Part shown: positions 5,429-60,692 of the stretch, piece after piece
Numbering within the stretch: the first letter of the stretch is position 1
How the letters are laid out: the number at the start of each line of letters is the position of its first letter
Assembly: GCF_001307295.1 (NCBI RefSeq)
Contig: NZ_CP012700.1
Span: 2,545,001 to 2,609,000 of the forward strand
From: Sphingopyxis macrogoltabida
GTDB lineage: Bacteria; Pseudomonadota; Alphaproteobacteria; Sphingomonadales; Sphingomonadaceae
Length of the DNA: 64,000 nt
Reading direction: 5' to 3'
The notes under the pieces: generated by a model
What the model saw: the letters and a program-made list of their open reading frames with translations, nothing else
Told to the model about the DNA's origin: nothing
Databases searched by the model: none
Translations under genes and position numbers: made by a program

Positions 5429-5444
5429 AGATAGAATACTAAGT
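5429..5444. promoter_or_regulatory. Operator A of the ACTTAG-N4-CTAAGT family
   Basis: AGATAG-AATA-CTAAGT, 10 of 12 arm bases match the palindrome ACTTAG-N4-CTAAGT seen complete at 58414. It sits between the divergent acyl-CoA ligase (start 5383) and MetE-like gene (start 5481) and overlaps TAGAAT, a plausible -10 for the rightward gene, so binding would block transcription. Confidence 0.6.
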
Positions 5445-5480
5445 AAATACTGGCCAGCCTGAAAATCGAGAGGATTGGCC

Positions 5481-6533
5481 TTGTTCGACCACCCCATATT
5501 GCCGACGACGATCGTCGGAAGCTACCCCCAGCCCGACTGGCTGATCGACCGCGAACGGCTGAAGGCCAGCCTGCCCCCGCGCGTCCGCGCCGAGACGCTG
5601 TGGCGCATCCCCGAACCGTGGCTCGCCGATGCGCAGGAAGCGGCAACGCTGATGGCGATTCGCGATCAGGAAGAACTTGGCATCGACATCGTCGGCGACG
5701 GCGAAATGCGCCGCGAAAGCTATTCGAACCGCCTCGCGACCGCGCTGTCGGGAATCGATAGCGAAAAGCACGGCACCGCGGTCGACCGCACCGGCAATGC
5801 CAACCCGGTGCCACTCGTCTCGGGCCCGATCCGCCGCGTCGCGCCGATCGAGGCGCAGGATGCAGCGTTCCTCCGCCGCCATTCGACCAAACCGGTGAAG
5901 CTCACCCTGCCCGGCCCGTTCACGATGACGCAGCAAGCGGAAAATGGCTATTATCCCGACGCGCGGGCGCTCGCGATGGACTATGCCGACGCGGTCAATG
6001 CCGAGGTGAAGGATCTGTTCGCGGCGGGTGTCGATGTCGTCCAGCTCGACGAACCCTATCTGCAGGCACGCGCCGCCGAGGCGAACAGCTATGCGATCGA
6101 GGCGATCAACCGCGCGCTCGAGGGGGTCGGCGGCACGACCGCGCTGCATATCTGTTTCGGCTATGCGATGGTGCACCATGGCGCCGGCGCAACGGGGCCG
6201 AAGCCCAAGGCCTATGATTTTCTCGCCGAACTCGAAGCGTCGGCGATCGACGTCATCTCGATCGAAGCGGCACAGCCGGGGCTCGACCCGGCGATCCTCG
6301 CCGAACTGCCCACCAAGACGATCATGTACGGCGTGCTCGATCTGTCGATTCCCGATGTGGAAACTCCCGAGGTCGTCGCCGGCCGCATCCGCGAGGCGCT
6401 GCGTTATGTCGACGCCGAACGGCTGTGGATCGCGCCCGATTGCGGGATGAAATATCACAGCCGCGAGCATAGCCAGGCCAAGCTGAAGACAATGGTCGAC
6501 GGGACCGCACTGGTGCGGGCCGAACTCGCCTGA
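5481..6533 (+). CDS. MetE-like zinc-dependent methyl/alkyl transferase, C-terminal domain type
   Basis: About 350 residues, matching only the catalytic half of cobalamin-independent methionine synthase (full MetE is about 750). TTG 5481 is chosen because GAGAGG ends 7 bases before it; TTG 5475 is possible. Seen: GSYPQPDWL near the start, HICFGY (His-x-Cys zinc ligands), Glu in DVISIEAAQPG and PDCGMKYHSREHS (third zinc thiolate). This fold activates a thiol as Zn-thiolate; family members include methionine synthases and epoxyalkane:coenzyme M transferase. Its place opposite an acyl-CoA ligase and near GSTs suggests a catabolic transfer to a thiol rather than methionine synthesis (inference). 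Confidence 0.8.
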   Translation: MFDHPILPTTIVGSYPQPDWLIDRERLKASLPPRVRAETLWRIPEPWLADAQEAATLMAIRDQEELGIDIVGDGEMRRESYSNRLATALSGIDSEKHGTAVDRTGNANPVPLVSGPIRRVAPIEAQDAAFLRRHSTKPVKLTLPGPFTMTQQAENGYYPDARALAMDYADAVNAEVKDLFAAGVDVVQLDEPYLQARAAEANSYAIEAINRALEGVGGTTALHICFGYAMVHHGAGATGPKPKAYDFLAELEASAIDVISIEAAQPGLDPAILAELPTKTIMYGVLDLSIPDVETPEVVAGRIREALRYVDAERLWIAPDCGMKYHSREHSQAKLKTMVDGTALVRAELA

Positions 6534-6536
6534 CAG

Positions 6537-6596
6537 CGTCATCCCGGCGAAGGCCGGGATCTCACCGTCGTCATCCCGGCCTTCGCCGGGATGACG
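6537..6596. repeat. Intergenic palindromic repeat (possible bidirectional terminator)
   Basis: A perfect 24-base inverted repeat: 6537-6560 pairs with 6573-6596 around a 12-base loop, and each arm is itself nearly palindromic around GGCGAAGGCC. It lies between converging genes (MetE-like stop 6533, hydrolase stop 6603). A related sequence is found at 14661-14748. Confidence 0.85.
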
Positions 6597-6602
6597 AATT
6601 GG

Positions 6603-7295
6603 TCAGGCGTCGATAAAATCCGTCAACAACGGTACCAAAACCTCCGGTGCCTCGACCGTCGGCAGATGCCCCGCGCCCGCAATCACTTCGAGCCGCGCCC
6701 CCGGAATCGCATCTGCAATCTCGTCATGATGCGCCCGGCTGGTGATGCCGTCCTTCTCGCCCCAGATCAGCAGCGTCGGCACCGCGATCTCCCCGAGCCG
6801 CGGGCGGCTGTCGATACGCGCCATGATCGCGCGCTGCTGCGCAAGGAAGGTGTCGGCGCCGGTATCGGCCGCCATCGCCCGCGCGATTCCGAGCAGTCGT
6901 TCGTCATTCCGCTTCTCTTCGGGAAAGAGGATCGGGATGCGTTCTTCGACAACCTGATCGAAATTGCCGCTCTCGACAAGGTCGATATAGCCCTGCCGCC
7001 GCGCCGTCTGCGCCGGGCCGTCGGCCGAAGCGAGCGTCGAGATCAGAGCAAGCTTCGCAACGCGTCCGGGCGCGCGGCGCATCACATCGAACGCGACGAA
7101 GCCGCCCATCGCGTGCGCGACAAGCGCGAATTTGGGCGGGGCGTTGTCGAGCAGGCGCTGCGCGAAGCCCTCGATCGTATCGTCGCTGCGATTGTCGGCG
7201 ACGATCACCTCGCGGTCCGCCCATGCATCGAGGAGTGGCTGCCACACGGCGTCGGTCAAAAGCTGACCGGTAATCAGAACGATGGGAAGCGACAT
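6603..7295 (-). CDS. Alpha/beta-fold hydrolase homologue lacking the nucleophile serine
   Basis: 230 residues from ATG 7295, whose A overlaps the TAA of the upstream dehydrogenase (TAATG). The alpha/beta fold is clear: oxyanion region near LITG, elbow LVAHAMGGFVAF, acid Asp182 in WGEKDG, His210 in GAGHLP. The nucleophile elbow normally reads GHSMGG; here the serine is Ala62 (codon at 7110-7112) and the first Gly is Ala60, while the Asp and His of the triad remain. It is either a non-hydrolytic lyase/isomerase-like protein or an inactive partner. It is the last gene of a coupled five-gene set. Confidence 0.8.
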   Translation of the reverse strand: MSLPIVLITGQLLTDAVWQPLLDAWADREVIVADNRSDDTIEGFAQRLLDNAPPKFALVAHAMGGFVAFDVMRRAPGRVAKLALISTLASADGPAQTARRQGYIDLVESGNFDQVVEERIPILFPEEKRNDERLLGIARAMAADTGADTFLAQQRAIMARIDSRPRLGEIAVPTLLIWGEKDGITSRAHHDEIADAIPGARLEVIAGAGHLPTVEAPEVLVPLLTDFIDA

Positions 7296-8215
7296 TAGAC
7301 CACCTGATGAAGGAGAGATTCGCCCGCCGCGAGGCGACGGCAATTCTCGTGCGCCACGGTGAGGCTGCGCACGAGCGTTTCGGGAGTGAGCCAGGCGATA
7401 TGCGGCGCGAGCACCGCATTGGGCAGGCCGAGCAGGGGATTGCCGCGCGGCAGCGGCTCTTCGGCGAAGACATCGAGCCCGGCGCCGCGCAAATGCCCCG
7501 ACGCCATCGCCTCGACCAGCCGGGCCTGATCGACCAACTCGCCACGCGCGGTGTTCACCAGCACCGCACCCTTCTTCATCGCGAAGGGATCGATGCTCGC
7601 GCGCGTCTCGTCGGTCAGCGGCATGTGCAGCGACACGATGTCGCTTTCGGCTAGCAGGCGGTCGAGCGGCGAATAGTCGTAAGGCACGTCGCGCGGGCTG
7701 CGCGCGGTATAGACGACCTTCGCACCCAGCGCCGCGAGCACCGGCGCGAGGAGCTGCGCCGAATTGCCGAAACCGACCAGCCCCACCGTGCGCCCGCCGA
7801 TCTCGCCGACGCTGTCGAGTTCGGACGGGTCGGCACTCCAGCCTTCGCCGGCGCGCGTGCGCGCATCGAAGAAGCAGGTGCGGCGCAGCACCGCCATCAT
7901 CAACGACAACGCCATTTCGGCGACGGCCTGGCTGTTCGTGCCGGGCATGTTGCACACCGCGACTTCATGGTCGCGCGCGGCGTCGAGCGCGATCGTGTTC
8001 ACGCCGACGCCGAGCTTCTGGATCAGTTTGAGCTTCGGTGCCGACGCGATGAACTCGGGCGTCACGGGCGTCAGCACATGGAGCAGCGCTGTAATCTCGG
8101 GCGCGACCTCGTCGAGCGGTGCTGCCTCGTCGACATGCACGACGACGCCCGGCCCGAAGATTTCATCGACGGCCTCGCGAAAGCCGGGGCTCGGCCGGGC
8201 GTGGAGGACGATCAT
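7295..8215 (-). CDS. D-2-hydroxyacid dehydrogenase family (NAD-dependent)
   Basis: 306 residues from ATG 8215, which overlaps the TGA of the enolase-like gene (ATGA). It shows the D-isomer-specific 2-hydroxyacid dehydrogenase layout: N-terminal substrate domain with KLKLIQKLGVGVNTI, Rossmann motif VGLVGFGNSA, and the catalytic trio Arg in NTARGELVD, Glu in GLDVFAEEPLP and His in LAPHIAWLT. It oxidises or reduces a 2-hydroxyacid/2-ketoacid pair. Its coupling to an enolase paralogue and a kinase suggests that it handles a 2-oxoacid or enol product of that pair, an inference. Confidence 0.88.
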   Translation of the reverse strand: MIVLHARPSPGFREAVDEIFGPGVVVHVDEAAPLDEVAPEITALLHVLTPVTPEFIASAPKLKLIQKLGVGVNTIALDAARDHEVAVCNMPGTNSQAVAEMALSLMMAVLRRTCFFDARTRAGEGWSADPSELDSVGEIGGRTVGLVGFGNSAQLLAPVLAALGAKVVYTARSPRDVPYDYSPLDRLLAESDIVSLHMPLTDETRASIDPFAMKKGAVLVNTARGELVDQARLVEAMASGHLRGAGLDVFAEEPLPRGNPLLGLPNAVLAPHIAWLTPETLVRSLTVAHENCRRLAAGESLLHQVV

Positions 8216-9510
8216 GCCGTCACCCGGCCGATCGACCCGGCAAAGGCCGAAAAGCCCGCGAATTCGGCGTCGCCGCCCATCGCTTCCTCGATCCGCAGCA
8301 TCTCGTTCCACTTCGCCATACGCTCCGACCGCGTGAAGCTGCCGACCTTCAGTTGCCCCGCGTTCCAGCCGGTCGCGAGATGCGCGATGGTGACATCCTC
8401 GGTCTCGCCCGAGCGCGCCGAAACGATCGCGCCCCAGCCGCGCGTCACGGCGGCGTCGAGCGCGGCCTTTGCCTCGGTCACTGTGCCGACCTGATTGACC
8501 TTGATCAGCGCGGCATTGCACACCGCCGCCTCGCCCGCTCGTTCGACGCGCGCCGCGTCGGTGACGAGAACGTCGTCACCGATGATCTGGACGCGCTCGC
8601 CGATCGCCGCGGTGACCGCCGCCATCGTCGTCCAGTCGTCCTGTCCCGCCGGATCCTCAATCGACAGGATCGGATAGCGCCCCGCCCATTCGACGATCCG
8701 CGCCGCCATCGCTTTACCCGACAGGCGCCCGTCGTCGAGCGCGAGGGTGTAGCCGTCGGCGTCACCCAGCTCGTTCGCCGCGATGTCGAGCGAGATGAAC
8801 ACCTCCTCGCCCGCGCGGTGCCCGCTCGCCTCGATCGCCCTCGTCAGCGTGTCGAGCGCATCCTCGTTCGACGCGAAGTTCGGCCACCAGCCGCCTTCGT
8901 CGGCGACCCCCGACAAGGGCCCCTTGGCTTCCATCAGCTTGCCTGCGGCGCGATAGACATCGTCGGTGATTTCGAGCGCGCGGCGGAAGCTTCCGGCCTG
9001 CGGACACATGATCATGAAATCCTGTACGTCGGTGCGCCGCCCGGCATGGGCGCCGCCGCCGAAAATCTGGATCTCGGGTAGCGGCACGCGCACCTTGCGC
9101 CCTTCGGCCAGATAGCGCCACAGCGGCTCGCGCGCGTCCGCCGCGGCGGCGTGCAGCACCGCCATCGACACCGCGACGACGGCATTCGCGCCGAGCCGCG
9201 CCTTGTTCGCCGTGCCGTCAAGATCGCACAGCGCAATATCGACCGCGACCTGTTCGCGCGCATCCATGCCCGCGAGCGCACCCGCAATCTCGGCACCGAT
9301 CCCCGCAACCGCACCGTTCACGCCGAAACCGCCGAATGCCGCGCCGCCGTCGCGCAGGTCGATCGCTTCATGCGCGCCGCGCGAAGCGCCCGCGGGCGCG
9401 ATGGCGCGGCCGATGGCGCCCGATTCCAGCACGACCTCTGCCTCGACGGTGGGCCGGCCGCGCGAATCCCAGAGCTGGCGGCCGGTGACGGAGGCGATAC
9501 GCGAAGTCAT
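8212..9510 (-). CDS. Enolase-like protein (divergent phosphopyruvate hydratase paralogue)
   Basis: 432 residues, the normal length of enolase, from ATG 9510 (overlaps the kinase stop by four bases). Metal ligands are kept: Asp242 (SLDIAA), Glu285 (SIED), Asp312 (GDD); so are the acid/base Glu205 (DEGG) and Lys337 (LIKVNQ), His155 and Lys388. Changed: the flexible loop PSGAST becomes PAGASRG, the Glu of QEFM becomes Asp164, and the HRSGETED histidine becomes Ala365. The protein probably catalyses an enolase-type dehydration or enolisation of a substrate other than 2-phosphoglycerate. It sits between a kinase and a 2-hydroxyacid dehydrogenase, so it is not expected to be the glycolytic copy. 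Confidence 0.85.
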   Translation of the reverse strand: MTSRIASVTGRQLWDSRGRPTVEAEVVLESGAIGRAIAPAGASRGAHEAIDLRDGGAAFGGFGVNGAVAGIGAEIAGALAGMDAREQVAVDIALCDLDGTANKARLGANAVVAVSMAVLHAAAADAREPLWRYLAEGRKVRVPLPEIQIFGGGAHAGRRTDVQDFMIMCPQAGSFRRALEITDDVYRAAGKLMEAKGPLSGVADEGGWWPNFASNEDALDTLTRAIEASGHRAGEEVFISLDIAANELGDADGYTLALDDGRLSGKAMAARIVEWAGRYPILSIEDPAGQDDWTTMAAVTAAIGERVQIIGDDVLVTDAARVERAGEAAVCNAALIKVNQVGTVTEAKAALDAAVTRGWGAIVSARSGETEDVTIAHLATGWNAGQLKVGSFTRSERMAKWNEMLRIEEAMGGDAEFAGFSAFAGSIGRVTA

Positions 9511-10487
9511 GCAAGGTTCCTTTTCCAGTTGGCGACCAGTTCGCCGAGCGGCGACGGGCGGGCGATCAGCGCCCGCGCCTGATCGCGCACGATGTTCTTG
9601 TGTTCGGGGTTGGTCAGATAAGGCGCCGGCGACTTGCCCTCGACCCGCGCGAGAAGCAGCGCCGCGGTCAATTTGCCCGCGCGCAGCATCAGCCCGCCCG
9701 TATCTTCCCAGTCGATCCCCGCGCGATAGGCGTCGACGAGCGCCGCCGCCGCCTCGTTCAGCCGCGCGTCGCCCGACCACACCGCCTTCAGCAGCAGGTG
9801 CGTCGTGCAAAAGGCGAGGTCGAAGGCCGGATCGCCATAGACCGCGCATTCGGCGTCGAGAAACACTGGGCCACCGGCGCTGACGAGGATATTCTTCGGG
9901 CTGACGTCGCCATGGGCCAGCGCGATCTTGCGTCCCGAAAGATCGTCGGCAAGCGCGGTGAGGATGGGCGCGAGTTCGGCATCATGCCGCGCGACATGGA
10001 GCAGGAACGGATCGACGCGCAGCGCGCGGAACATCTCGTCGTTCGGGAAGTCGCCGCGGTCGCCGTCGTTATGCGCGGTCGCGGCGTGAACCGCGGCGAT
10101 ACCGGCACCAACCTGCGCGGCGAAAGCGAGGTCGACACGCCCCGCCATCAGCTCGTCTTTCCACACCGGACAGCCGGGCAGGAAGCGCATCGCAAAGGCG
10201 TGCCCCGTCGGCAGTTCGGCGAGCACTTCGGGCGCGAGCCGCGGGTCGACGCCGCGCGCACGCCGCAACCAGCGCACCTCGCTCGTCCCGCGTTCGACCG
10301 GCGCGAGCCATTCGGCGGCGACGCGAAGCTGGGGCAGCGGGCGTTTGACGACGATCGGGCCGGTCGGCGTCTCGACCTTCCACACGTCGCAGGACACGCC
10401 GCCGGTCAACGGCTGAAGGACGACGTCGCCCTCCCCCGTCAAACCGGCATTTCGCAATCCGGCAATGATTTCGGCCTCCGCCGTCAC
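9507..10487 (-). CDS. APH/choline-kinase-type phosphotransferase
   Basis: 326 residues from GTG 10487, one base after the preceding stop. The protein-kinase-like fold of the aminoglycoside/choline kinase family is shown by VVKRPLP (ATP lysine), the Brenner motif LAHGDVSPKNIL (catalytic Asp) and VFLDAECAVYGDPAFDLA (metal Asp). Such kinases phosphorylate small hydroxyl compounds. Sitting directly before the enolase paralogue, it may produce the phosphorylated substrate of that enzyme. Antibiotic resistance is unlikely in this context. The kinase stop overlaps the enolase-like start. Confidence 0.82.
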   Translation of the reverse strand: MTAEAEIIAGLRNAGLTGEGDVVLQPLTGGVSCDVWKVETPTGPIVVKRPLPQLRVAAEWLAPVERGTSEVRWLRRARGVDPRLAPEVLAELPTGHAFAMRFLPGCPVWKDELMAGRVDLAFAAQVGAGIAAVHAATAHNDGDRGDFPNDEMFRALRVDPFLLHVARHDAELAPILTALADDLSGRKIALAHGDVSPKNILVSAGGPVFLDAECAVYGDPAFDLAFCTTHLLLKAVWSGDARLNEAAAALVDAYRAGIDWEDTGGLMLRAGKLTAALLLARVEGKSPAPYLTNPEHKNIVRDQARALIARPSPLGELVANWKRNLA

Positions 10488-10488
10488 G

Positions 10489-11622
10489 TCACAGCTTCTC
10501 CCGGATCCACGCGCCGACGAGGTCGGCGGCGTTCTGGCGCTCTTCTATCGAATCCTCGAAATAATGCGCCCCGGTGATCAGTTCGAGTTTCTTGTCGGTC
10601 GAGCCGAGGAAATCGAAGATCTTGCGCGCGTCGCTCGGGAAGACGCCCGTGTCGGCCGTCCCCTGTACGACCAGCGCGGGCGTGTCATGCTTGGCGAGGT
10701 GCGGCTGCCCCTGACATGGCGAGGTTTCGAGGCTCCACATGTTGAGCCAGGTCTTCAGCGTGTTGGCGCGGCCGATGCTCGGCGTCCGGTTCGCGGTCGC
10801 GGGGTCGCCGCGATAGCACCAGTTCGGCTTGCGGTCCGACGGGTCAATCGCCGGATCGACGCAGCGGATGTCGCCCCAGCAACGGAACATCGGGAAGATG
10901 CGATCGGGAATGCCCGCGGCATTGAGCCGCGCAAGTTCGGCCTTCGCCCAGTCGGTGATCCGCTGGTTGCGCGCGCGCTGCCCGGCGCGATATTTTTCGA
11001 TGAACGCGTCCGAATAGGGCGGGCCGTTATCGGGGTTGAACGGATCGAGTTCGGGATCGGTCGCGACCGGATCATTCTCGTCGATCACCGACGCGTCCAT
11101 CCAGTCGGTCAGCACCTCGGGACGCCCCTGGTGGGCGTTAAAGCTGATATAGAGATCACCCTTGATGAGCTGCGCCAGCGCATCCTGACCGATCGGGGGA
11201 AGCCGGTCGGTCAACGTTGGCGCGATCGCCTCGGCCTGATAGGCGCCCATCAGCGAGCCGCCGCCCGAATTGCCGAGGATTACGATCTGTTCGACCCCGG
11301 CCTCTTCCTTCAGCCATTTCATGCCGACGCCAATGTCGAGCACGGCATGTTCGAGCAGGAACTGGTCCTCGAAGCCGCGATAACGCGTGTTCCAGCCGAG
11401 GAACCCGATGCCCTGCCGCGCAAAATAGGGCGCGATATAATGTTCGGAGAAATCGACATTATAATGGGTAGCGATGACCGCCACCTTCGGGCGCTTGCCC
11501 GCCTCGGTCCAGTAGATGCCCTGGCACGGATGCCCGCCCGCCTGAATGCGCGGCGCGGTCGGCGACACGCGCCCGATAAATTGCGCATCCAGTCCTGCGA
11601 TCCCGTTCGGGTCCACCATCAT
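10489..11622 (-). CDS. Alpha/beta hydrolase, first gene of the kinase/enolase-like cluster
   Basis: 377 residues from ATG 11622 (AGGAG five bases upstream on its strand; a second ATG follows at once at 11619). Complete triad: Ser in ILGNSGGGSL, Asp in GTADTGVFPSD and His in GAHYFED. A long cap of about 130 residues rich in Trp, Cys and Asp lies between the nucleophile and the acid. It is larger than typical esterases and probably acts on a bulky ester, lactone or C-C bond. It is the first gene of a set of five that read leftward with gaps of one base or overlaps. Confidence 0.78.
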   Translation of the reverse strand: MMVDPNGIAGLDAQFIGRVSPTAPRIQAGGHPCQGIYWTEAGKRPKVAVIATHYNVDFSEHYIAPYFARQGIGFLGWNTRYRGFEDQFLLEHAVLDIGVGMKWLKEEAGVEQIVILGNSGGGSLMGAYQAEAIAPTLTDRLPPIGQDALAQLIKGDLYISFNAHQGRPEVLTDWMDASVIDENDPVATDPELDPFNPDNGPPYSDAFIEKYRAGQRARNQRITDWAKAELARLNAAGIPDRIFPMFRCWGDIRCVDPAIDPSDRKPNWCYRGDPATANRTPSIGRANTLKTWLNMWSLETSPCQGQPHLAKHDTPALVVQGTADTGVFPSDARKIFDFLGSTDKKLELITGAHYFEDSIEERQNAADLVGAWIREKL

Positions 11623-11662
11623 CGTCTCTCCTAATCTGAATTTATCTGCGGATCACCACCAT

Positions 11663-11726
11663 CGTCACCCCGGACTTGACCCGGAGTCCATGCAGCGATG
11701 GATTCCGGATCAAGTCCGGCATGACG
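11663..11726. repeat. Intergenic palindromic repeat
   Basis: Imperfect 64-base inverted repeat beginning CGTCACCCCGGACTTGA and ending TCAAGTCCGGCATGACG, between the hydrolase start at 11622 and the acyl-CoA ligase stop at 11743. It resembles the stem-loop at 19847-19949, which has the same outer CGTCA...TGACG ends. Confidence 0.8.
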
Positions 11727-11742
11727 AAGGGAAGAATTTGCA

Positions 11743-13377
11743 TCAGCGGGTCACTTCGAAGGGCAGCTTATATCCCTCCAGCCCGGCACGGATCGCCTTC
11801 TTGTCGATCTTGCCGGTCGGCCCGAGCGGGATTTCATCGACGAACAGCACATCGTCGGGCATCCACCAGCGGGCGATCTTGCCGTCGAGATACGCCTTCA
11901 AATCGTCGGCGGACGCCGTGCTGCCGTCCTTGAGCTGACAGAGCAGGATCGGCCGCTCGTCCCATTTCGGGTGCGCGACGCCGACGACCGCGGCGTTGGC
12001 GACCGCGTCATGCCCCATCGCGATATTCTCGATTTCGATCGAGCTGATCCACTCGCCGCCCGACTTCACGACATCCTTGGCGCGGTCGGTGATCTGCATA
12101 TAGCCTTCGCCGTCGATCGTGCTGACGTCGCCGGTGTCGAAAAAGCCTTCCTCATCGAGCACGTCGCCGCCCTCGCCGCCGAAATAGCCGCGCGCGATCG
12201 TCGGCCCCTTGATCATCAGCCGCCCCGGCGTCTTGCCGTCGTGCGGCAGGCGATCTCCCGCGTCGTCGACCAGCTTCATCTCGAGCCCGCAGAGCAGCCG
12301 CCCCTGCTTCAGCTTGTACGCCATCTGCGCGTCATCGCCCTTCGCCGCAACCGACGCATTGGGCACCGATACCGTCCCGAGCGGCGAGGTTTCGGTCATC
12401 CCCCAGCCCTGGACGACATCGACGCCATAATCGTCGCGGAAAGTGCGGATGATCGATTCGGGACATGCCGAGCCGCCGATCGTCACACGTTCCAACGTCG
12501 TGAAGCGCTTGCCGTTTTCCTGCATATAGGTGAGCAGCATCTGCCAGACGGTCGGTACGGCGGCCGAATAGGTGACGCCCTCTTCCTCGATCAGGTTATA
12601 GATCGATTCGCCGTCCATCCGCTGGCCGGGCAACACGAGTTTCGCGCCGACCGCGGGCGCCGAGTAGACGACGCCCCATGCATTGGCGTGATACATCGGC
12701 ACGACCAGCAGAACCGTATCGCGCGCCGACAGCGCCAGCGCGTCGCGCTGCAACGTCATCAGCGCGTGGATATAGTTGGAGCGGTGCGAATAGAGCACGC
12801 CCTTGGGATTGCCGGTGGTCCCGCTGGTGTAACAAAGCCCGCAGGCGGCATTTTCGTCGAAGCCGCCCCAGTCATATTCGGCCGGCTGCCCCGCGATCCA
12901 GTCGTCGAAGGCGATCGCCTCGAAATCAGTTTCCGGCATCGACGCCGCGTCGCAAAAAAAGATCACCTTTTCGATCGACGGCACCTGCGGCAGCAGGTCC
13001 GCGACCAGATCGGCAACCGCCGGATCGGCGATCAGCAGCCGGTCGCCGGCATGGTCCGCGATATAGGCGATCTGTTCGGGGAACAGGCGTGGATTGAGCG
13101 TGTGGAGCACCGCTCCCATCCCCGCCGCGCCATACCATGCCGCAAGATGGCGCGCGCCGTTCCAGCCCATCGTCGCGACACGGTCGCCCGGCTTGATCCC
13201 CTCGCCGGCGAGCGCATTCGAGACGCGCTTCCCATCGGCGTGGATGTCGGCATAGGTCGAACGGGTGACGCGCCCCTCGGCATCGCGCGAAACGATCTCG
13301 CGGTCGCCGTGCCAGTTCGCCGCATGATCGATGATCCGGTCGACCGTCAGCGGCACATTCTGCATCAATCCGTCCAT
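11743..13377 (-). CDS. Fatty-acid/acyl-CoA ligase (AMP-forming)
   Basis: 544 residues from ATG 13377 with GGGAGAG upstream on its strand; ATG 13365 is the only near alternative. Motifs: [16 protein letters not shown] (P-loop), PMYHANAW (typical of medium/long-chain ligases), [38 protein letters not shown] and the lysine in [12 protein letters not shown]. It makes an acyl-CoA thioester with ATP. It is divergent from the MarR gene, with operator site B in the gap. It shares only the general fold with the ligase at 3818 and has distinct motif residues, so the substrates probably differ. Confidence 0.9.
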
Positions 13378-13411: not shown

Positions 13412-13427
13412 GCATAGTATACTAAGT
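13412..13427. promoter_or_regulatory. Operator B of the ACTTAG-N4-CTAAGT family
   Basis: GCATAG-TATA-CTAAGT, 10 of 12 arm bases match, with an inner perfect 10-base palindrome TAGTATACTA. It lies 35 bases before the acyl-CoA ligase start (13377) and 104 bases before the MarR start (13531), so it can control both. Confidence 0.6.
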
Positions 13428-13530: not shown

Positions 13531-13965
13531 ATGCGTACCAATCAGCTTATTATCGCCCTTTTTCAACGCTTCTGCTGGCTCGACGAGGGCCTGCAGGCGC
13601 GACTGCACGATCGCGGCTGGCCCGATGTCAGCCGCCCGCAATCGATGGTGATGACCAACATCGTCAGCGGCATCGTGCGCCCGTCGGACATTGCGCGCAA
13701 CCTCGGCGTGTCGCGGCAGGCGATCCACAGCACGATCGGCCAGATGGTCAAGCTCGGCATCGTCGAACTCGCGCCCGACCCCGGCGACCGGCGCCACATG
13801 ATCGTGTCGCTGACCGAAACCGGTGCAAAGATGCGGCATGACGCGCAGCGCGCGATGGATGCGCTGTCCGACCAGCTTGCCGAACGGCTGGGCCACGAAC
13901 GCTTCGACGCGCTGCTGGCAACGCTCGAAGCCGACTGGGGCGACAATATCGAGCGGACGCGCTAG
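13531..13965 (+). CDS. MarR-family transcriptional regulator
   Basis: 144 residues, the usual MarR length. The winged helix-turn-helix is at about residues 50-95: RPSDIARNLGVSRQAIHSTIGQMVKLGIVEL followed by the wing DPGDRRHMIVSLTETG, with its Asp-x-Arg signature. Flanking helices would form the dimer interface and the ligand pocket. It is divergent from an acyl-CoA ligase over operator B and overlaps the convergent FMN reductase by four bases. It is one of three candidate regulators for the palindrome family; MarR repressors typically respond to aromatic acids or acyl-CoA products. Confidence 0.88.
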   Translation: MRTNQLIIALFQRFCWLDEGLQARLHDRGWPDVSRPQSMVMTNIVSGIVRPSDIARNLGVSRQAIHSTIGQMVKLGIVELAPDPGDRRHMIVSLTETGAKMRHDAQRAMDALSDQLAERLGHERFDALLATLEADWGDNIERTR

Positions 13966-14537
13966 GCGGACAGCGCCTTCGCGACCGCGACCAGCCGCCC
14001 GGCCGTCATTTCGACCAGCGACGCCGGCAGCGCCTCCTTCAGGCTGCCATCCTCGGCGAACGCCGCGTGCGCATTCGGCACCACCACCTGTTCGGGGATC
14101 ACCAGCATCTGGATCGTCGACAGGATCTGGCGCAAATGCATCAGCCCGCGCAGCCCGCCGAAGGGACTGATCGACGCCGACATGATCGCCGCCACCTTGC
14201 CGCGATAGGCGGTCAGCGCGACGAGCCCCTCGCCCCCGGTCGGCCGCGACGCCCAATCGATCGCATTCTTGAGCAGCGGCGGCAGCGACCCGTTATATTC
14301 GGGCGACACGAACAGCAGCCCGTCCTGCGCCGCGAAAATGTCCTTGAGCTGCTGTGCGTCGGGCGGAAAATCATCCGCCTCGAGCGCCGCCGAATAGAGC
14401 GGCAGATCGAACGTCGCCAGATCGACGCGCGTCACGGTAGCGCCCTGCGCCGCAAGACTCGCGGCGGCGAGGTCGCCGAGCATACGATTGAACGATCCCT
14501 CGCGCGTGCTGCCGACGATTACCGCAATGCTGGTCAT
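13962..14537 (-). CDS. NADPH-dependent FMN reductase family protein
   Basis: 191 residues from ATG 14537, preceded on its strand by GGAGGG. The flavodoxin-like fold is shown by the phosphate-loop start IAVIVGSTREGSFNRMLG, the FVSPEYNGSLPPLLKNAIDWAS segment that contacts the isoalloxazine ring, and AIMSASISPFGG. It supplies reduced flavin or reduces quinones and azo compounds. Operator C is 19-34 bases upstream of its start codon. It converges with, and overlaps by four bases, the MarR gene. Confidence 0.85.
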   Translation of the reverse strand: MTSIAVIVGSTREGSFNRMLGDLAAASLAAQGATVTRVDLATFDLPLYSAALEADDFPPDAQQLKDIFAAQDGLLFVSPEYNGSLPPLLKNAIDWASRPTGGEGLVALTAYRGKVAAIMSASISPFGGLRGLMHLRQILSTIQMLVIPEQVVVPNAHAAFAEDGSLKEALPASLVEMTAGRLVAVAKALSA

Positions 14538-14555: not shown

Positions 14556-14571
14556 AATTAGAATACTAACC
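14556..14571. promoter_or_regulatory. Operator C of the ACTTAG-N4-CTAAGT family
   Basis: AATTAG-AATA-CTAACC, 9 of 12 arm bases match and the inner TTAG-AATA-CTAA is intact. It is the most degenerate of the seven. It sits immediately upstream of the FMN reductase ribosome binding site, in the promoter position. Confidence 0.45.
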
Positions 14572-54352: not shown

Positions 54353-55069
54353 CTATGGCCGATCGGCAAGCCCGTCGAGCTTGCGTTCGATCCGCTCCAA
54401 TCGTTCGGCAACCTCGCCCTGCGCCCCGCCCGGCAAGGCGAGCACCGGCATGATATAGATCGCGACGCGCTGCCGCACCTCTTCGAACGTCGCATAATCG
54501 TCGGCGCCCAGCACGAGCATCTGGTGGAGCAGCCATTCGAGCAGGCGCTCGAGAGCGTCGGGCGGCGTCCATTGCCCGGAGGCCGCGGCGCCTTCGAGCA
54601 TCGAGCGCACCAGCGCCCCGGTGATCGACTTGTGCGCGGCAAGGAAGATCGAGAAATCGTCGTGAAGCAGGCCCTCCTGCGCCACCTTGTGGATCCACGG
54701 CGTGTTGCAGATGCTCTCGATCCCGCCCGCGATCACCTGTTCGAGCCGCTCCTCGAGCGGACCGAGCCCGACCGCAATCTGCCCGCTGCGTTCGAGATAC
54801 GGTCCGGCCAGATGCTGGAGAAGCGCGAGCAGCAACCCCTCGCGATTGCCGAACCAGCGATAGAGCGTCGCGCGCGACACGCCGGATTCGCGCACCACAT
54901 GGTCGATCGTGACATCGCGAAAGCCGATGCGTTCGACGACGATCGCAGCGGCATCGAGCGCCGCCTCGCGGCCGCCCAAGGCGCTGCCCGCTCCGCCACC
55001 GCGCGGATTTGCGTCGATTGTTGCGATCCCAGCCTCCCTTGATGAGCCGCCTCGCCTATCATGTCGCAC
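54353..55069 (-). CDS. TetR-family transcriptional regulator
   Basis: About 238 residues if started at GTG 55069; TTG 55081 is equally in frame and a strong AAGGGAGG at about 55035 points to a start further in, but no start codon follows at proper spacing. The HTH is FRDVTIDHVVRESGVSRATLYRWFGNREGLL at about residues 55-85. It is divergent from a TonB receptor over operator G. It is a candidate ligand for the palindrome family. Confidence 0.85.
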   Translation of the reverse strand: MRHDRRGGSSREAGIATIDANPRGGGAGSALGGREAALDAAAIVVERIGFRDVTIDHVVRESGVSRATLYRWFGNREGLLLALLQHLAGPYLERSGQIAVGLGPLEERLEQVIAGGIESICNTPWIHKVAQEGLLHDDFSIFLAAHKSITGALVRSMLEGAAASGQWTPPDALERLLEWLLHQMLVLGADDYATFEEVRQRVAIYIMPVLALPGGAQGEVAERLERIERKLDGLADRP

Positions 55070-55097
55070 TTGATGAGGCAAACTCTTGCGCTTGTCT

Positions 55098-55115
55098 CAC
55101 TTAGTGTGATAAGTG
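55098..55115. promoter_or_regulatory. Operator G of the ACTTAG-N4-CTAAGT family
   Basis: ACTTAG-TGTG-ATAAGT (55099-55114), 11 of 12 arm bases match; it can also be read as the perfect inverted repeat CACTTA-N6-TAAGTG. It lies between TetR (start about 55069) and the TonB receptor (start 55179). Confidence 0.65.
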
Positions 55116-55178
55116 GACTTCAACGTCTCATGAATGAGAGACCGGTTTCAGCCGGTCCGGGACGGGAGGGAGAGAGAA

Positions 55179-57545
55179 ATGACACGACGCCTATTGCTGC
55201 TCCTCGCCGGCGCCAGCATCGCCGCCGCCGCGCAGGCCCAGACTGCCCGCGCCACCACGGCCGCCGATGCCCCCGTCCCCGCCGATGACAACAACGCCCA
55301 GAGCTCGGGCATTGCCGACATCGTCGTCACCGCGCGCCGCACCAGCGAAGCCGCGCAGACGATCCCGCTCGCGATCAGCGTGTTCGGCGGCCAGCAACTC
55401 GCCGACACCAACGTCCAGGGTATCGAGAATATTGCGCAGCAGACGCCGAACTTCTTCGTCCAGACGTCGAGCGCCGACCCGACCGGCGTCCTCCTCACCA
55501 TTCGCGGCCAGTCGCAACAGGATTCGATCCTGACCATTGAGTCGCCGATCGGCGTCTATGTCGACGGCATCAACTATATCCGCTCGTCGAACCTCGAAAC
55601 CGCGCTGACCGACGTCGAACGCGTCGAGGTGCTGCGCGGCCCGCAGGGGACGCTGTTCGGCAAGAACACCACCGGCGGCGCGATCAACATCACGACGCGC
55701 CAGCCCGATCTCGATGCGGTCGGCGGTTATGTAAAACTCAGCGCCGCGACGCACGACCGTTATGGCGCGACCGGCGTCCTCAACCTGCCGCTCATCGACG
55801 ACGTGCTCGGCGTGCGCATCCTCGCGCAACGGATCGAGGACGGCTCGCTCGGCGTCAACGGCCTCGGCGACGGGATCGGCGGCAAGAAGCAGACCGCTTT
55901 CCGCACCAACTGGCTGTTTACCCCGAACGACAGCGTCACTTGGGCGATCTCGGCCGACTATACCCGCACCCGCGGCGACGCGCCGGTGAGCAAGCTCGCC
56001 TTCGTCAGCCCCTTCCCCAGCCCCGCTCCGGGCACACCGAACCCCGCCCCGGCGCTGATCGACATCGCGATCAGCCAGGGCATCCTCGATCCGGCGCTGC
56101 TCGCCGACCCGGAGGGCAATGCGGCCGCGATCGGCGCTGCACTCGGGCAGGCGCACGCGCTGTTCACCGGCCTCGTCGGGCGGCGCGGCTTTTACGACAA
56201 TGATGCAACGGGCGCGCAGGGCAGTTATGCGCGCACCTATGGCGTCAGCTCGAACCTGGCGGTCGAGCTGACGCCAACCTTGTCCTTCCGTTCGATCACG
56301 GCGGCACGCTGGCTGAAGCGCTGGCTCGACGTCGACCTCGACAGCTCGCCCTTCACGCTGCTCGAGGCCGAACTCGCGAGCCGCGCGAAGAACCTCAGCC
56401 AGGAATTCCAGTTCAGCGGCGAGATCGGCGACCGCGTCGACTGGATCACCGGGGTCTATTTCAACGAGGAAACCGGCCGCGACTTCTCGCGCGCGACGGC
56501 ACTCGGGACGATCAACGCGACCAACCCCAACATCACCGACGGCTTCGTCAAGAACAGCAGCTGGGCCGCCTTTGGCCAACTCATCGTCGACCTCACCGAC
56601 AGCGTCCGCTTCACCGGCGGGCTGCGCTGGACCGAGGAAAGCAAGGAACTGCGCTCGTTCAACCGCTCGTCGGGCAGCGCGGTGTGCAACATCCCGTCGG
56701 CGCTGCAACTCGGCGGCACCTGCCAGGCACGCTTCAAGGACAGCTTCTCGGATTACTCCTACCTCGCCAGCCTCGACTGGACGATCCAGCCCGGCGTCCT
56801 CGTCTATGCCCGCACCGCGCGCGGCTTCAAGGGCGGCGGCCAGAATCTGCGCGGCACCGGCACTGCCGACAGCTTCGCCGCCTTCGCGCCCGAAGTCGTC
56901 ACCGATTACGAAGTCGGGGCCAAGGCCGATTTGCTCGACCGCCGCCTGCGCGTCAACGTCGCGCTGTTTCAGGCCAATTACAGCGACATCCAGCGCACGA
57001 TCGTTCAGGCGTCGCCCGGCGGCGCGATCGTCAGCCTCGTCACCAACGCGGCGCGCGCGCGCATCCGCGGCGCCGAGGCCGAAATCACCGCGGTGCCGGT
57101 CGACGGGCTGACGCTGTCGGGCGGTTTCGGGGTCAACGACGCCAAATATCTCGACTTCACCGACGTCACCGGCGACCGCTCGAACGAGCCGTTCCAGTTC
57201 CCCAAATACAGCTATCGCCTCGCCGCCACCTACAGCACCCCGACCGGCGCCGGCGACCTGCGGCTCAGCGTCGACTGGAACTGGCGCAGCGCGACCCAGC
57301 TCGTCGGTTCGGCGATCTACCGCGACAGCCTGCGCCAGCCCGCCTACGGCCTGCTCGGCGCGCGCATCGCGCTCGACATCGACAGCATCAACAGCGAGAT
57401 TGCGGTGTTCGGCACCAACCTCACCAACCGCCATTATGCGGTGTCCGGGGTCCAGTTCGACAACAGCCTGGGGTTCAACACGCTCTACGCAGGCGAGCCG
57501 CGGGTGATCGGCCTGCAACTCACGACGCGCTTCGGCGGGGGCTGA
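55179..57545 (+). CDS. TonB-dependent outer-membrane receptor
   Basis: 788 residues from ATG 55179 with GGGAGGGAGAGAG upstream. Signal peptide ends AAAAQAQ; TonB-box region ADIVVTARRT; plug with VEVLRGPQGTLFGKNTTGGAINITTRQ; barrel ending VIGLQLTTRFGGG. It is divergent from TetR over operator G, so expression is likely controlled by substrate. The cargo is unknown, but the operator ties it to the acyl-CoA ligase regulon. Confidence 0.93.
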   Translation: MTRRLLLLLAGASIAAAAQAQTARATTAADAPVPADDNNAQSSGIADIVVTARRTSEAAQTIPLAISVFGGQQLADTNVQGIENIAQQTPNFFVQTSSADPTGVLLTIRGQSQQDSILTIESPIGVYVDGINYIRSSNLETALTDVERVEVLRGPQGTLFGKNTTGGAINITTRQPDLDAVGGYVKLSAATHDRYGATGVLNLPLIDDVLGVRILAQRIEDGSLGVNGLGDGIGGKKQTAFRTNWLFTPNDSVTWAISADYTRTRGDAPVSKLAFVSPFPSPAPGTPNPAPALIDIAISQGILDPALLADPEGNAAAIGAALGQAHALFTGLVGRRGFYDNDATGAQGSYARTYGVSSNLAVELTPTLSFRSITAARWLKRWLDVDLDSSPFTLLEAELASRAKNLSQEFQFSGEIGDRVDWITGVYFNEETGRDFSRATALGTINATNPNITDGFVKNSSWAAFGQLIVDLTDSVRFTGGLRWTEESKELRSFNRSSGSAVCNIPSALQLGGTCQARFKDSFSDYSYLASLDWTIQPGVLVYARTARGFKGGGQNLRGTGTADSFAAFAPEVVTDYEVGAKADLLDRRLRVNVALFQANYSDIQRTIVQASPGGAIVSLVTNAARARIRGAEAEITAVPVDGLTLSGGFGVNDAKYLDFTDVTGDRSNEPFQFPKYSYRLAATYSTPTGAGDLRLSVDWNWRSATQLVGSAIYRDSLRQPAYGLLGARIALDIDSINSEIAVFGTNLTNRHYAVSGVQFDNSLGFNTLYAGEPRVIGLQLTTRFGGG

Positions 57546-57586
57546 GGCCCGTCCGGTCCGGGGTGGTTTCCAAACCGCCCTCTATT

Positions 57587-57670
57587 CCCGTTCATGTCGA
57601 GCGAAGTCGAGACACCCATCGAAGTTGCGCCTAGCCGAGGGGCATCTCGACTTCGCTCGATGCGAACGGG
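57587..57670. repeat. Intergenic palindromic repeat (GTCGAGCGAAGTCGAGA type)
   Basis: Arms of about 30 bases (CCCGTTCATGTCGAGCGAAG and complement near 57640-57670) pair with few mismatches around a loop of about 22 bases. It lies between the TonB receptor stop (57545) and the MarR stop (57737), both converging on it. Confidence 0.8.
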
Positions 57671-57736
57671 TTAGGGGTTGGCCTAAACGGCAGAAACCGG
57701 CCGGAACCCGTCACTCACGCCTTCCACAAACAGCAA

Positions 57737-58243: not shown

Positions 58244-58413
58244 AACCTGCTCCCCTGCGATGGCCCGGCATCGGGCATTTGCCCGCGTCCCGCCGAAGCC
58301 TGGCGCAAACCTTAGAACGCGAAGATTCACCCCGCAACCTCTTCGTGGCGCTGGCAACCAGCGCCTCCGCACCAACCCGTCGATATCGTTGGACAAGGTC
58401 GCGACCTTCCATT

Positions 58414-58429
58414 ACTTAGAATACTAAGT
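58414..58429. promoter_or_regulatory. Operator D, perfect ACTTAG-N4-CTAAGT
   Basis: ACTTAG-AATA-CTAAGT, the only copy with all 12 arm bases symmetrical. It ends 13 bases before the GTG of the leuD-like gene and overlaps TAGAAT and TATTCT -10-like boxes on both strands, so the leader of leuD must be very short or start inside the site. Confidence 0.75.
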
Positions 58430-58442
58430 TAATGGAGGTGAA

Positions 58443-59030
58443 GTGGAGAAATTTGTCCGGATCAAGGGCGTCGCGGCACCGCTGCCGCTCGCCAATGTCG
58501 ATACCGACATGATCATTCCCGCGCGCTATATGAAGGCGCTGACCCGCCTCGGGCTCGGCCGTCATCTGTTCCGGGAACTGCGCTTCGACGACGAAGCGGG
58601 CGGCGAACGCCCCGACTTCATTCTCAACCGGCCGGCATGCCGCGATGCGCAGATATTGATCGCCGACCGCAATTTCGGCTGCGGCTCGTCGCGCGAGCAC
58701 GCGGTGTGGGCGCTCGGCGATTTCGGTATCCGTTGCGTGATCGCACCGAGCTTCGGCGATATCTTCGCGGGCAATGCGCGCAAGAACGGCCTGTTGCTCA
58801 TCCGCCTGCCCGAGGCGCTGTGCGACCGGCTGCGCCGCGAGGTCGAACTCGCCCAATATGCTCCCATCGAGGTCGATCTTGCGGCGCAGCAGATTCGCCT
58901 CGCTTCGGGCGAAGCGATCGATTTCGCCATCGATCCCGGCGACCGCCGCATCCTCATCGAGGGACTCGACGACATCGCCCGCACCCTGCGCCACGCCGAC
59001 GCGATCGCGCGGTTCGAGACGGCAACCTAG
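58443..59030 (+). CDS. leuD: 3-isopropylmalate dehydratase small subunit-like (LeuD family)
   Basis: 195 residues from GTG 58443 with GGAGG five bases upstream. Typical swivel-domain motifs: [35 protein letters not shown] and [17 protein letters not shown]. With the large subunit at 59027 it would make a hydro-lyase of the aconitase superfamily. Unusually, the two subunit genes converge and their stops overlap by four bases. Operator D in front suggests a catabolic paralogue rather than the leucine-pathway copy. Confidence 0.85.
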
Positions 59031-60445
59031 CCGAGACTGTCCGGCGCCGCGATAAAGCCCGCGATCGCACTCGCCGCCGCGAGCGCCGGGCTCATCAGAT
59101 GCGTCCGCCCGCCGCGCCCCTGCCGGTTCTCGAAATTGCGGTTCGACGTCGCGGCGCAGCGCTCGCCGGGAAGCAGCCGGTCGGCGTTCATGCCGACGCA
59201 CATCGAGCAGCCGGGTTCGCGCCAGTCGAAACCCGCGTCGCGCAGCACCGCGTCGATCCCTTCCGCCTCGGCCTGCCGCTTGACCAGCCCCGACCCCGGT
59301 ACGACCATCGCGCGAACGTGCGGCGCCACCCGGCGCCCGCGCACGACATCGGCGACGATGCGCAAATCCTCGATCCGGCTGTTGGTGCAGCTCCCGATGA
59401 ACACGCGGTCGAGCCGCGTCCCGGCGATCGGCGCGCCGGACGAAATGTCCATATAAGCGAGCGCCCGCTCTGCGGCTGCCCGCGCCTCCTCGCCCGTCAG
59501 CGACGCCGGGTCGGGGACGACCCCGTCGACCGCAACGACCTGCGACGGGTTCGTCCCCCAGCTCACCATCGGCCGCACGTCGCGCGCGTCGATCCGCACC
59601 TCGCGGTCGAACCTCGCACCGTCGTCGCTCGCCAGTGTCCGCCAGCGGGCGACTGCGGAGTCCCACGCCGCACCCGCGGGCGCCGCGGGCCGGCCCGCCA
59701 GATAGGCGAAGGTCACCGCGTCGGGCGCGACCAGCCCGGCGCGCGCGCCCATTTCGATGCTGAGGTTGCAGAGCGTCATCCGCCCCTCCATCGACAGCGC
59801 CCGGATCGCTTCCCCCGCATGTTCGATCACATGGCCCCCGGCGCCGTCGACCCCGATCGTGCCGAGCAGGTGCAGCGCGAGGTCCTTGGCGTGGACATGC
59901 GGCGCCAGCGTTCCGTCGACCGTCACCCGCATGTTGCGCGACCGGCGCTGGCGGATCGTCTGCGTCGCCAGCACATGCTCGACCTCCGACGTGCCGATTC
60001 CGAAAGCGAGCGCGCCGAACGCGCCATGCGTCGAGGTGTGGCTGTCGCCGCAGACGATCGTCATGCCCGGCTGCGAGCGCCCCTGTTCGGGGCCGACGAC
60101 ATGGACGATGCCGCCGCGCGGGTCGCCCATCGGAAAATTCTCGATCCCCGCCTGCGCCGTATTCGCCACCAACGCCTCGAGCTGCGCACGCGCCTCGGCG
60201 TCGGGGACCCCGGCGGGGCCGGCCGCCTGCCCCTCGGTCGGCACATTGTGATCGGACAGTGCAAGCACCCGGTCAGGGCGGCGCACCGCCCTCCCCGCCG
60301 CAGCGAGCCCGGCGAACGCCTGCGGCGAGGTCACCTCGTGCAACAGGTGGAGGTCGATATAGAGCAATGTCTCGCCGTCATCCTCGGCGACGACATGCGC
60401 ATCCCAGATCTTGTCATAAAGCGTGCGAGGGACCGGGCGCGCCAT
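59027..60445 (-). CDS. leuC: 3-isopropylmalate dehydratase large subunit-like (LeuC family)
   Basis: 472 residues from ATG 60445. The [4Fe-4S] cysteines are present: [10 protein letters not shown] and [13 protein letters not shown]. Substrate motifs [26 protein letters not shown] and [20 protein letters not shown] are intact. It hydrates and dehydrates a branched dicarboxylate such as isopropylmalate or citraconate. It is transcribed toward its own small subunit. Operator E lies about 150 bases upstream of the start. Confidence 0.9.
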
Positions 60446-60593
60446 CAGGCCCTACCCTGCCGTGCGCCACTTTGCCGGCGCCCGCGATTCGCCGCGCCGG
60501 CGCGATGGCCGCATAATCCAAAAGCTGCCCTATCCATCACCCCGACGCTCCCGTCCCCATGCTCCATCTCCTGCCGGACAACGGCTCAAAAAT

Positions 60594-60609
60594 ACTTAGA
60601 AACCTAACT
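60594..60609. promoter_or_regulatory. Operator E of the ACTTAG-N4-CTAAGT family
   Basis: ACTTAG-AAAC-CTAACT, 11 of 12 arm bases match. It is 149 bases before the leuC-like start (60445), reading leftward. Confidence 0.6.
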
Positions 60610-60676
60610 TATATGGCACGGACAGCGCATCGGGCAAGCGCTTTTCCGCCAAATGTGCTTTTCACAAATAAGAAAT

Positions 60677-60692
60677 ACTTAGTACTTGAAGT
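60677..60692. promoter_or_regulatory. Operator F of the ACTTAG-N4-CTAAGT family
   Basis: ACTTAG-TACT-TGAAGT, 10 of 12 arm bases match, extended by AAAT and ATTT on the outside so that an inverted repeat AAATACTT-N8-AAGTATTT is exact. It is 68 bases after operator E and 225 before the TonB receptor start. Confidence 0.6.

What the first reader, a model, noticed from the sequence alone, without database searches (positions are those of the whole stretch)
5429..60692. Seven copies of one 16-bp inverted repeat link two catabolic regions 40 kb apart
ACTTAG-N4-CTAAGT occurs at 5429, 13412, 14556, 55099, 58414, 60594 and 60677, with 9 to 12 of 12 arm bases matching. Every copy is intergenic and next to an acyl-CoA ligase, the MetE-like gene, FMN reductase, leuC/leuD-like genes, two TonB receptors or a MarR/TetR gene. 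I found none in the thi/aro/acc, pump, or rpo blocks. This is what a dedicated regulon looks like: uptake, CoA activation and degradation of an unidentified compound.
Basis: partly seen in the sequence, partly recalled or inferred. Interest (0 to 1): 0.85.

Follow-up and report, generated by a model that had tools for sequence, protein, structure and literature searches.

The report
MarR repressor regulon, split gene cluster
A short palindrome in front of uptake and breakdown genes is very probably the docking site of one MarR-type repressor that controls a conserved but unassigned breakdown pathway in Sphingopyxis bacteria; in this genome the pathway's once single gene cluster has been pulled about 40 kb apart.

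Summary
In detail: all seven sites exist and are intergenic. At two or fewer arm mismatches the window has 6 sites, all intergenic; genome-wide there are 14, of which 8 lie in one 71-kb stretch. The regulon idea is largely right, with three corrections. (1) The two regions were one cluster: in 37 of 55 related loci leuC/leuD and the acyl-CoA ligase both lie within 10 kb of the MarR gene 57737; the gap here is a rearrangement. (2) MarR 57737 is the best regulator candidate, ahead of MarR 13531 and the TetR: in the genus 58 of 62 genomes with it have two or more strict motif copies, 0 of 18 without it, and one genome of another genus has it plus 4 strict copies but no MarR 13531 match. (3) The regulon is larger: sites lie left of the window and, in relatives, at unlinked TonB/MFS/DUF3237 genes. 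Expected mechanism: a SlyA-like dimer on TTAG-N4-CTAA blocks promoters until a pathway acid or its CoA ester releases it. The substrate is unknown; an aromatic compound is hinted at. No binding was measured. New member of a known kind.

The parts
5429..5444 (.). Operator AGATAGAATACTAAGT between divergent second acyl-CoA ligase and MetE-like gene
   Evidence: site of <=3 mismatches before the MetE-like gene in 32 of 40 loci
13412..13427 (.). Operator GCATAGTATACTAAGT between divergent acyl-CoA ligase operon and MarR2
   Evidence: before the ligase in 40 of 44 and before MarR2 in 37 of 41 loci, the same site
14556..14571 (.). Operator AATTAGAATACTAACC (9 of 12) before the FMN reductase
   Evidence: <=3 mismatches in 23 of 43 loci
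55099..55114 (.). Site ACTTAGTGTGATAAGT between divergent TetR and TonB receptor genes; could instead be the TetR's own site
   Evidence: same 16 bases at the same gene pair in G213 (L094) and listed in G212
58414..58429 (.). Operator ACTTAGAATACTAAGT, perfect palindrome, between divergent MarR1 and leuD-like gene
   Evidence: <=3 mismatches before leuD in 38 of 38 loci and before MarR1 in 45 of 54; TGGACA box 19-24 bp 5' of it in leuD orientation
60594..60609 (.). Operator ACTTAGAAACCTAACT before the leuC-like gene
   Evidence: <=3 mismatches in 22 of 31 loci
60677..60692 (.). Weaker site ACTTAGTACTTGAAGT between leuC-like and TonB receptor genes
   Evidence: similar second site about 70-85 bp from the leuC site in L032, L038, L050, L057, L060, L071
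57737..58243 (-). MarR1, the proposed regulator (true start codon not settled)
   Evidence: MarR PF01047 3.2e-15; co-occurs with the motif; HTH segment near-invariant in 56 aligned sequences
13531..13965 (+). MarR2, second MarR-family regulator of the cluster
   Evidence: MarR_2 1.5e-10; not found in some relatives that keep the motif
54353..55081 (-). TetR-family regulator
   Evidence: TetR_N 6.4e-11
3818..5383 (-). Second acyl-CoA ligase
   Evidence: AMP-binding 6.2e-78
5475..6533 (+). MetE-like (MesD-related) gene; start 5475 or 5499
   Evidence: Meth_synt_2 2e-39; 3RPD 1.5e-58
6603..13377 (-). Probable operon under operator 13412: acyl-CoA ligase (11743-13377), hydrolase (10489-11622), APH-type kinase (9507-10487), enolase paralogue (8212-9510), 2-hydroxyacid dehydrogenase (7295-8215), alpha/beta hydrolase (6603-7295)
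   Evidence: no site of <=3 mismatches before inner genes: enolase 0 of 46, dehydrogenase 0 of 46, alpha/beta hydrolase 0 of 45, kinase 1 of 45, hydrolase 5 of 47
13962..14537 (-). NADPH-dependent FMN reductase
   Evidence: FMN_red 6e-43
55179..57545 (+). TonB-dependent receptor
   Evidence: best NCBIfam models are TonB-dependent receptors, below their cut-offs
58443..59030 (+). leuD-like small subunit
   Evidence: TIGR00171 209.6 bits over cut-off 116.25
59027..60445 (-). leuC-like large subunit, one of three LeuC homologues of >=55% identity in this genome (itself counted)
   Evidence: TIGR00170 704 bits over cut-off 560; the others 60% and 55%
60917..63187 (+). TonB-dependent receptor
   Evidence: best NCBIfam models are TonB-dependent receptors, below their cut-offs
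190..3805 (+). Further genes of the left part (CMD-family, SMP-30-like, GST, VOC, GST); membership in the regulon inferred from gene order
   Evidence: Pfam; homologues of the CMD, VOC, GST (1809) genes beside the cluster in L064 and L098

Best explanation
The 16-bp palindrome (core TTAG-N4-CTAA) is the operator of MarR1 (57737-58243). Expected working: a MarR1 homodimer sits on each operator at the promoter and blocks transcription of outer-membrane receptors, a transporter, acyl-CoA ligases, the leuC/leuD-like hydratase, the MetE-like enzyme and MarR1 itself; a pathway acid or its CoA ester binds MarR1 and releases it, and the units switch on together. The genes formed one cluster in the ancestor; in this genome it was split and its halves now flank about 40 kb of other genes. 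Shown: the sites, their conservation before orthologous genes, their co-occurrence with MarR1, the contiguity in relatives. Inferred: binding by MarR1, repression, the inducer, the pathway.
For: Sites of <=3 mismatches before orthologous genes: leuD 38 of 38, MarR1 45 of 54 (the same divergent site), MarR2 37 of 41 and ligase 40 of 44 (the same site), MetE-like 32 of 40, leuC 22 of 31, against 0 of 46, 0 of 46 and 0 of 45 before three genes inside the operon. In the 260 bp before MarR1 of 51 loci (L021-L071 of the 63 fetched), ACTTAG arms give 42 at <=2 and 37 at <=1 mismatches; the best of the other 179 permuted arms gives 25, and no other arm exceeds 2 at <=1. Genus, 80 genomes: >=2 copies at <=1 mismatch in 58 of 62 with MarR1 and 0 of 18 without (Fisher 2e-14, relatedness ignored), while the reversed control pattern does not differ, 1.82 vs 2.06. 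Family, 199 genomes: >=3 copies in 4, each with a MarR1 homologue of 68% or more; one of them, G074, another genus, has no MarR2 match at E<=1e-20 and carries 10 sites, 9 at <=2 mismatches, in a 32-kb homologous cluster. Unlinked perfect palindromes between TonB and MFS genes in 8 other genomes. The core equals the SlyA consensus TTAGCAAGCTAA in half-sites and spacing (PMC5797941, passages); SlyA is among MarR1's matches.
Against: No binding or expression data. MarR1 and MarR2 nearly always occur together in the genus, so they cannot be told apart there. Four of 62 genomes with MarR1 have fewer than 2 strict copies: G199 (broken cluster), G200 and G247 (MarR1 without the cluster in the 18 kb read) and G274 (cluster present, sites mostly degenerate). 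In the family 3 of 7 genomes with MarR1 of >=68% have none at <=1 mismatch; by matching coordinates two are the MarR1 genes of L069 and L070, which lack most of the cluster, and one is L059, whose site has 2 mismatches. Three of 18 genus genomes without MarR1 have one copy. No site before the second ligase in the 7 loci that hold most of that gene. A consensus scan found no sigma-70 promoter match in 54900-61000. Site 55099 may belong to the TetR.
Confidence: 0.8

Rival explanations
1. MarR2 (13531) binds the motif, alone or together with MarR1; MarR1 is then one of its targets.
For: MarR2 lies beside a conserved site (37 of 41 loci) and matches in 61 of 80 genus genomes at E<=1e-20, nearly the same set as MarR1. 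The two MarR1-bearing genomes without a MarR2 match, G200 and G247, have 0 and 1 strict copies.
Against: G074 has 4 strict copies and no MarR2 match at E<=1e-20. Loci L062, L065, L066, L072-L075 keep sites while the best MarR2 homologue of those genomes is 36-53% identical and none is called inside the cluster. G200 and G247 lack the target cluster beside MarR1.
Confidence: 0.12
2. Several regulators share the sites: MarR1 serves the core cluster, while the TetR (54353) owns site 55099 and its divergent TonB gene.
For: 55099 deviates in one arm (GATAAGT) and is kept letter for letter at the same TetR/TonB pair in G213, on another contig than MarR1.
Against: It still matches 11 of 12 arm bases, and operators of this length by chance at that spot are unlikely (8 intergenic sites against at most 2 for other arms).
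Confidence: 0.2
3. The palindromes are not operators but a dispersed repeat or chance similarity.
For: The plain count in the window is not outstanding against permuted arms.
Against: Only the palindrome core is shared between sites, at promoter positions, with slot-specific conservation and absence before inner operon genes, and copy number follows MarR1.
Confidence: 0.03

Closest known systems
SlyA (MarR family), consensus TTAGCAAGCTAA (PMC5797941, passages)
   Same: Half-sites TTAG/CTAA with four bases between; MarR1 matches the SlyA model and SlyA structures weakly
   Different: 47.2 bits against the SlyA equivalog cut-off of 120; targets here are a catabolic cluster, not H-NS-silenced genes
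CouR / FerC-type MarR repressors of hydroxycinnamate catabolism (PMC4737184, passages)
   Same: MarR repressor of catabolic genes with an acyl-CoA ligase, inverted-repeat operator between divergent promoters at several units
   Different: Operator cATTGA-N5-TCAATg, not TTAG-N4-CTAA; CoA-ester response not tested here
DesR of Sphingobium sp. SYK-6 (PMC6888825, passages)
   Same: Sphingomonad MarR-type repressor acting at several dispersed catabolic promoters and on its own gene
   Different: Operator GTTTGTGTCACATAC-like; vanillate/syringate as inducers
MesD core methionine synthases (PMC7857596, passages), for the MetE-like gene
   Same: 3RPD is the best solved match and the named substrate residues align
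   Different: Below the PRK09121 equivalog cut-off (244.6 vs 392); no MesX found in the genome (control silent); lies in a catabolic regulon

Membership tests
MarR family (MarR1) | MarR winged-helix domain over the curated cut-off | tested here: met
   PF01047 56.2 bits against 24.6
MarR family (MarR1) | Inverted-repeat site at its own divergent promoter | tested here: met
   58414-58429; <=3 mismatches before MarR1 in 45 of 54 loci
MarR family (MarR1) | Dimer that binds the site and is released by a ligand | not testable with these tools
   needs purified protein
SlyA proper (NF002926) | Score over the NCBIfam equivalog cut-off | tested here: not met
   47.2 against 120 bits
HpaR (TIGR02337) | Score over the NCBIfam equivalog cut-off | tested here: not met
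   57.8 against 121.2 bits
CouR/FerC-type regulators | Release by a hydroxycinnamoyl-CoA | not testable with these tools
   needs purified protein; no sequence comparison with CouR or FerC was made
MesD core methionine synthase (MetE-like gene) | Substrate residues Ser22, Glu73, Asp188 and the MesD-specific Tyr226 of 3RPD | tested here: met
   identical residues in the alignment, counted by eye with an inferred +3 numbering offset (residue list)
MesD core methionine synthase (MetE-like gene) | Score over the PRK09121 equivalog cut-off | tested here: not met
   244.6 against 392 bits
MesD core methionine synthase (MetE-like gene) | MesX partner (PF08908) in the genome | tested here: inconclusive
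   no match in the own genome, but none in the control genomes either

The most novel reading that the evidence does not exclude
MarR1 defines an unnamed MarR subfamily that senses an intermediate of an undescribed pathway for a plant-derived aromatic (lignin- or lignan-type) compound in Sphingopyxis and relatives. The pathway would combine DUF3237 decarboxylases, several glutathione transferases, a MesD-like methyltransferase, a kinase and an enolase paralogue, with several TonB receptors under one operator. Hints of an aromatic substrate: in G074 the motif cluster has ligA and ligB genes just before its first site and LigXa- and VanA-like genes inside it, and DUF3237 proteins act on lignan-type acids in a sphingomonad (PMC12607616, passages).
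Probability: 0.3. Interest if true: 0.65.

Novelty: new member of a known kind. Interest (0 to 1): 0.45.

Why it matters
It gives a testable, genus-wide regulon with a defined operator and a candidate regulator for about thirty enzyme and transporter genes (my count from gene order) whose common substrate I found described nowhere (paper searches). The operator lists pathway members even where the cluster is broken up, so it can be used to find missing genes, and the regulator's inducer would point to the substrate. It also shows a catabolic cluster that kept its operators after being split by rearrangement.

Tried and rejected
Permuted-arm control in the window: the plain count is not outstanding; the intergenic count and the comparative tests carry the claim. 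The 1.73-1.76 Mb sites that matched at <=2 mismatches were not counted as members: they fit another palindrome, AGTTATATAACT. The built-in reversed-pattern control gave more matches than the motif at <=2 mismatches in the own genome (48 against 14) and at <=3 (807 against 199); I set it aside there because the reversed word contains GATTC/GAATC, which I suspect is common (recalled, not tested), and used it only at <=1 mismatch as a flat comparison between genomes. In the own genome at <=1 mismatch it is 2 against 5. Consensus promoter scan: nothing. Paper search for the half-sites with MarR: 135 papers, the 20 listed look unrelated by title. Searches for a printed description of this regulon or cluster; two gave no paper, the listings of the others showed none that I recognised, and 67 listed 12 of 421. 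Structure prediction was not used. The list of places was capped, so the unlinked sites I read (12 stretches) are a sample chosen by me.
Full report
Observation. The seven palindromes exist as described. In a gene model of 124 kb that includes the window, all sites with two or fewer arm mismatches are intergenic (8 of 8; 6 of 6 in the window), where 10.7% of the window's 16-mers are wholly intergenic. Among 180 arms with the same letters no other has more than 2 intergenic sites. The plain count is less striking: 6 sites, tied for fourth of 180 arms, and at three mismatches 63rd. Three unlisted 9/12 matches exist, two of them in coding DNA. Genome-wide, 14 sites have two or fewer mismatches; 8 lie within 71 kb. 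At three mismatches there are 199, most of which must be chance; only part of that list was shown.

More members. Left of the window, sites lie between an HMG-CoA-lyase-like gene and a CoA-transferase gene (-10291), a DUF3237 gene and a TonB-receptor-like gene (-6864, three mismatches), and an SDR and an MFS gene (-2464) (the -6781 receptor was named by resemblance, not by a Pfam run). Five glutathione transferases by Pfam lie in this part and its continuation in the window; the -8138 protein is closest to YfcG in the PDB.

One cluster, later split. A search with MarR1 in genome contigs gave 63 loci; 55 have MarR1 at 50% identity or more. In 37 of these 55, leuC or leuD and the acyl-CoA ligase of the other region both lie within 10 kb of MarR1; some loci end earlier. 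The usual order is leuC, leuD, site, marR1, often a weak site, FMN reductase, marR2, site, ligase, hydrolase, kinase, enolase, dehydrogenase, alpha/beta hydrolase, MetE-like gene, site, second ligase. The nearest genome, G212, has MarR1 and MarR2 about 52 kb apart, and L021 has no homologue of the window's genes in the 10 kb after MarR1.

Conservation by slot. Best site with three or fewer mismatches from 250 bp before to 30 bp after the matched gene start: leuD 38 of 38 and MarR1 45 of 54 (one shared site), MarR2 37 of 41 and ligase 40 of 44 (one shared site), MetE-like 32 of 40, FMN reductase 23 of 43, leuC 22 of 31, second ligase 0 of 7, VOC gene 2 of 8; inner operon genes: hydrolase 5 of 47, kinase 1 of 45, enolase 0 of 46, dehydrogenase 0 of 46, alpha/beta hydrolase 0 of 45. 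Genes that matched below 50% identity, below 60% coverage, with a cut start, or too near a locus end were dropped from these counts; this removes most second ligases. In the Phenylobacterium-type loci L073-L075 (MarR1 at 57-60%) core sites such as GATTAGTATTCTATCC stand before MarR1, and the helix MREPTT is unchanged there.

Which regulator. Genus, 80 genomes: MarR1 in 62, MarR2 in 61 (one of these, G248, only a 47% paralogue), motif at one or no mismatch in 63. Two or more copies in 58 of 62 with MarR1 and 0 of 18 without; three of the 18 have one copy. The two MarRs cannot be separated there. Family, 199 genomes: three or more copies in four, G000, G122, G074, G150, all with MarR1 of 68% or more; G074 has no MarR2 match at E<=1e-20. 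Its region is a 32-kb relative of the regulon, without leuC/leuD, with 10 sites, 9 at two or fewer mismatches; none overlaps a called gene, though the stretch around one of them has no called gene. MarR1 genes without the cluster (L049, L054, L069, L070) have no site of two or fewer mismatches before them: targets and sites are lost together, but MarR1 alone does not guarantee the motif.

Unlinked sites. From the capped list I read 12 stretches. In eight genomes (G205, G206, G207, G209, G211, G213, G214, G218) a perfect palindrome stands between a TonB-receptor-like and an MFS-like gene with a DUF3237-like gene beside them; in G205, G206 and G211 a MarR1-like paralogue (46-54%) is in the same stretch, in the other five none is, and there MarR1 itself lies on another contig or more than 100 kb away. 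The others: a kinase/acyl-CoA-dehydrogenase/leuC unit in G209 (L087), a cupin gene in G217, the TetR/TonB pair in G213, the lyase/CoA-transferase pair in G219. DUF3237 was confirmed by Pfam for the G209 protein only of these. This argues for a regulator acting in trans.

Mechanism. The core TTAG-N4-CTAA has the half-sites and spacing of the SlyA consensus. At leuD, 36 aligned operators (35 loci and the window) show TGGACA 19-24 bp 5' of the operator, each of its positions kept in at least 90% of rows, and a short stretch between operator and start codon. I read this as a promoter whose -10 region the operator covers; this is inference, and the general promoter scan found nothing. Repression and release by an acid or CoA ester are inferred from CouR and DesR (passages).

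Pathway. Enzymes: two acyl-CoA ligases, a LeuCD-like hydratase (three LeuC homologues in the genome), an enolase paralogue (45% to the other enolase), a MesD-like protein. A DUF3237 protein, PinX, is reported for a lignan pathway of Novosphingobium and is compared there with two decarboxylases of a phenylcoumaran pathway (PMC12607616, passages). In G074 LigA and LigB genes and an oxidoreductase gene (LigC-like is my recall) precede the first site, and a LigXa-like Rieske protein and a VanA-like protein lie inside the cluster; whether these are controlled by the motif is not known. This points to an aromatic, perhaps lignin-derived substrate, not more.

Noticed in passing
Own genome G000:C1:1703030-1773155 (L018-L020, L106): A second region rich in catabolic-looking genes carries another palindrome, AGTTATATAACT: 4 exact, 2 with one and 2 with two mismatches in the 80 kb read, against 1 (two mismatches) in the 124 kb around the window. 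It looks like a separate regulon.
   Followed up: partly
5475-6533: MesD-like gene inside a catabolic regulon, near an FMN reductase in the ancestral cluster, with no MesX found in the genome (control silent).
   Followed up: partly
L084, L085, L086: Paralogous cluster with MarR1-like (46-54%) and MarR2-like (41-42%) genes and the same motif; FMN-reductase-like and sulfatase-like genes in L084 and L085, acyl-CoA dehydrogenase confirmed by Pfam in L084.
   Followed up: partly
L096, L097 (G199): Decaying copy of the cluster: MetE-like and hydrolase genes in fragments, no enolase match in the stretch, FMN reductase match short, sites degenerate.
   Followed up: no
L087:1176-5494 (G209): A leuC homologue (88%) with an acyl-CoA dehydrogenase and an APH/DUF6285 kinase gene behind one motif copy, away from MarR1: probable further pathway members missing from the window.
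   Followed up: partly
Own genome G000:C1:835866-835881 (L105:2867): Isolated three-mismatch site ACTTAGTATTCTACCG at the end of one gene and before a 134-aa gene; chance or an outlying member.
   Followed up: no
57590-57670 and 6535-6600: Inverted repeats of common-looking intergenic words (GTCGAGCGAAGTCGAGA; GTCATCCCGGCGAAGGCCGGGAT), seen by eye; perhaps REP-like elements.
   Followed up: no
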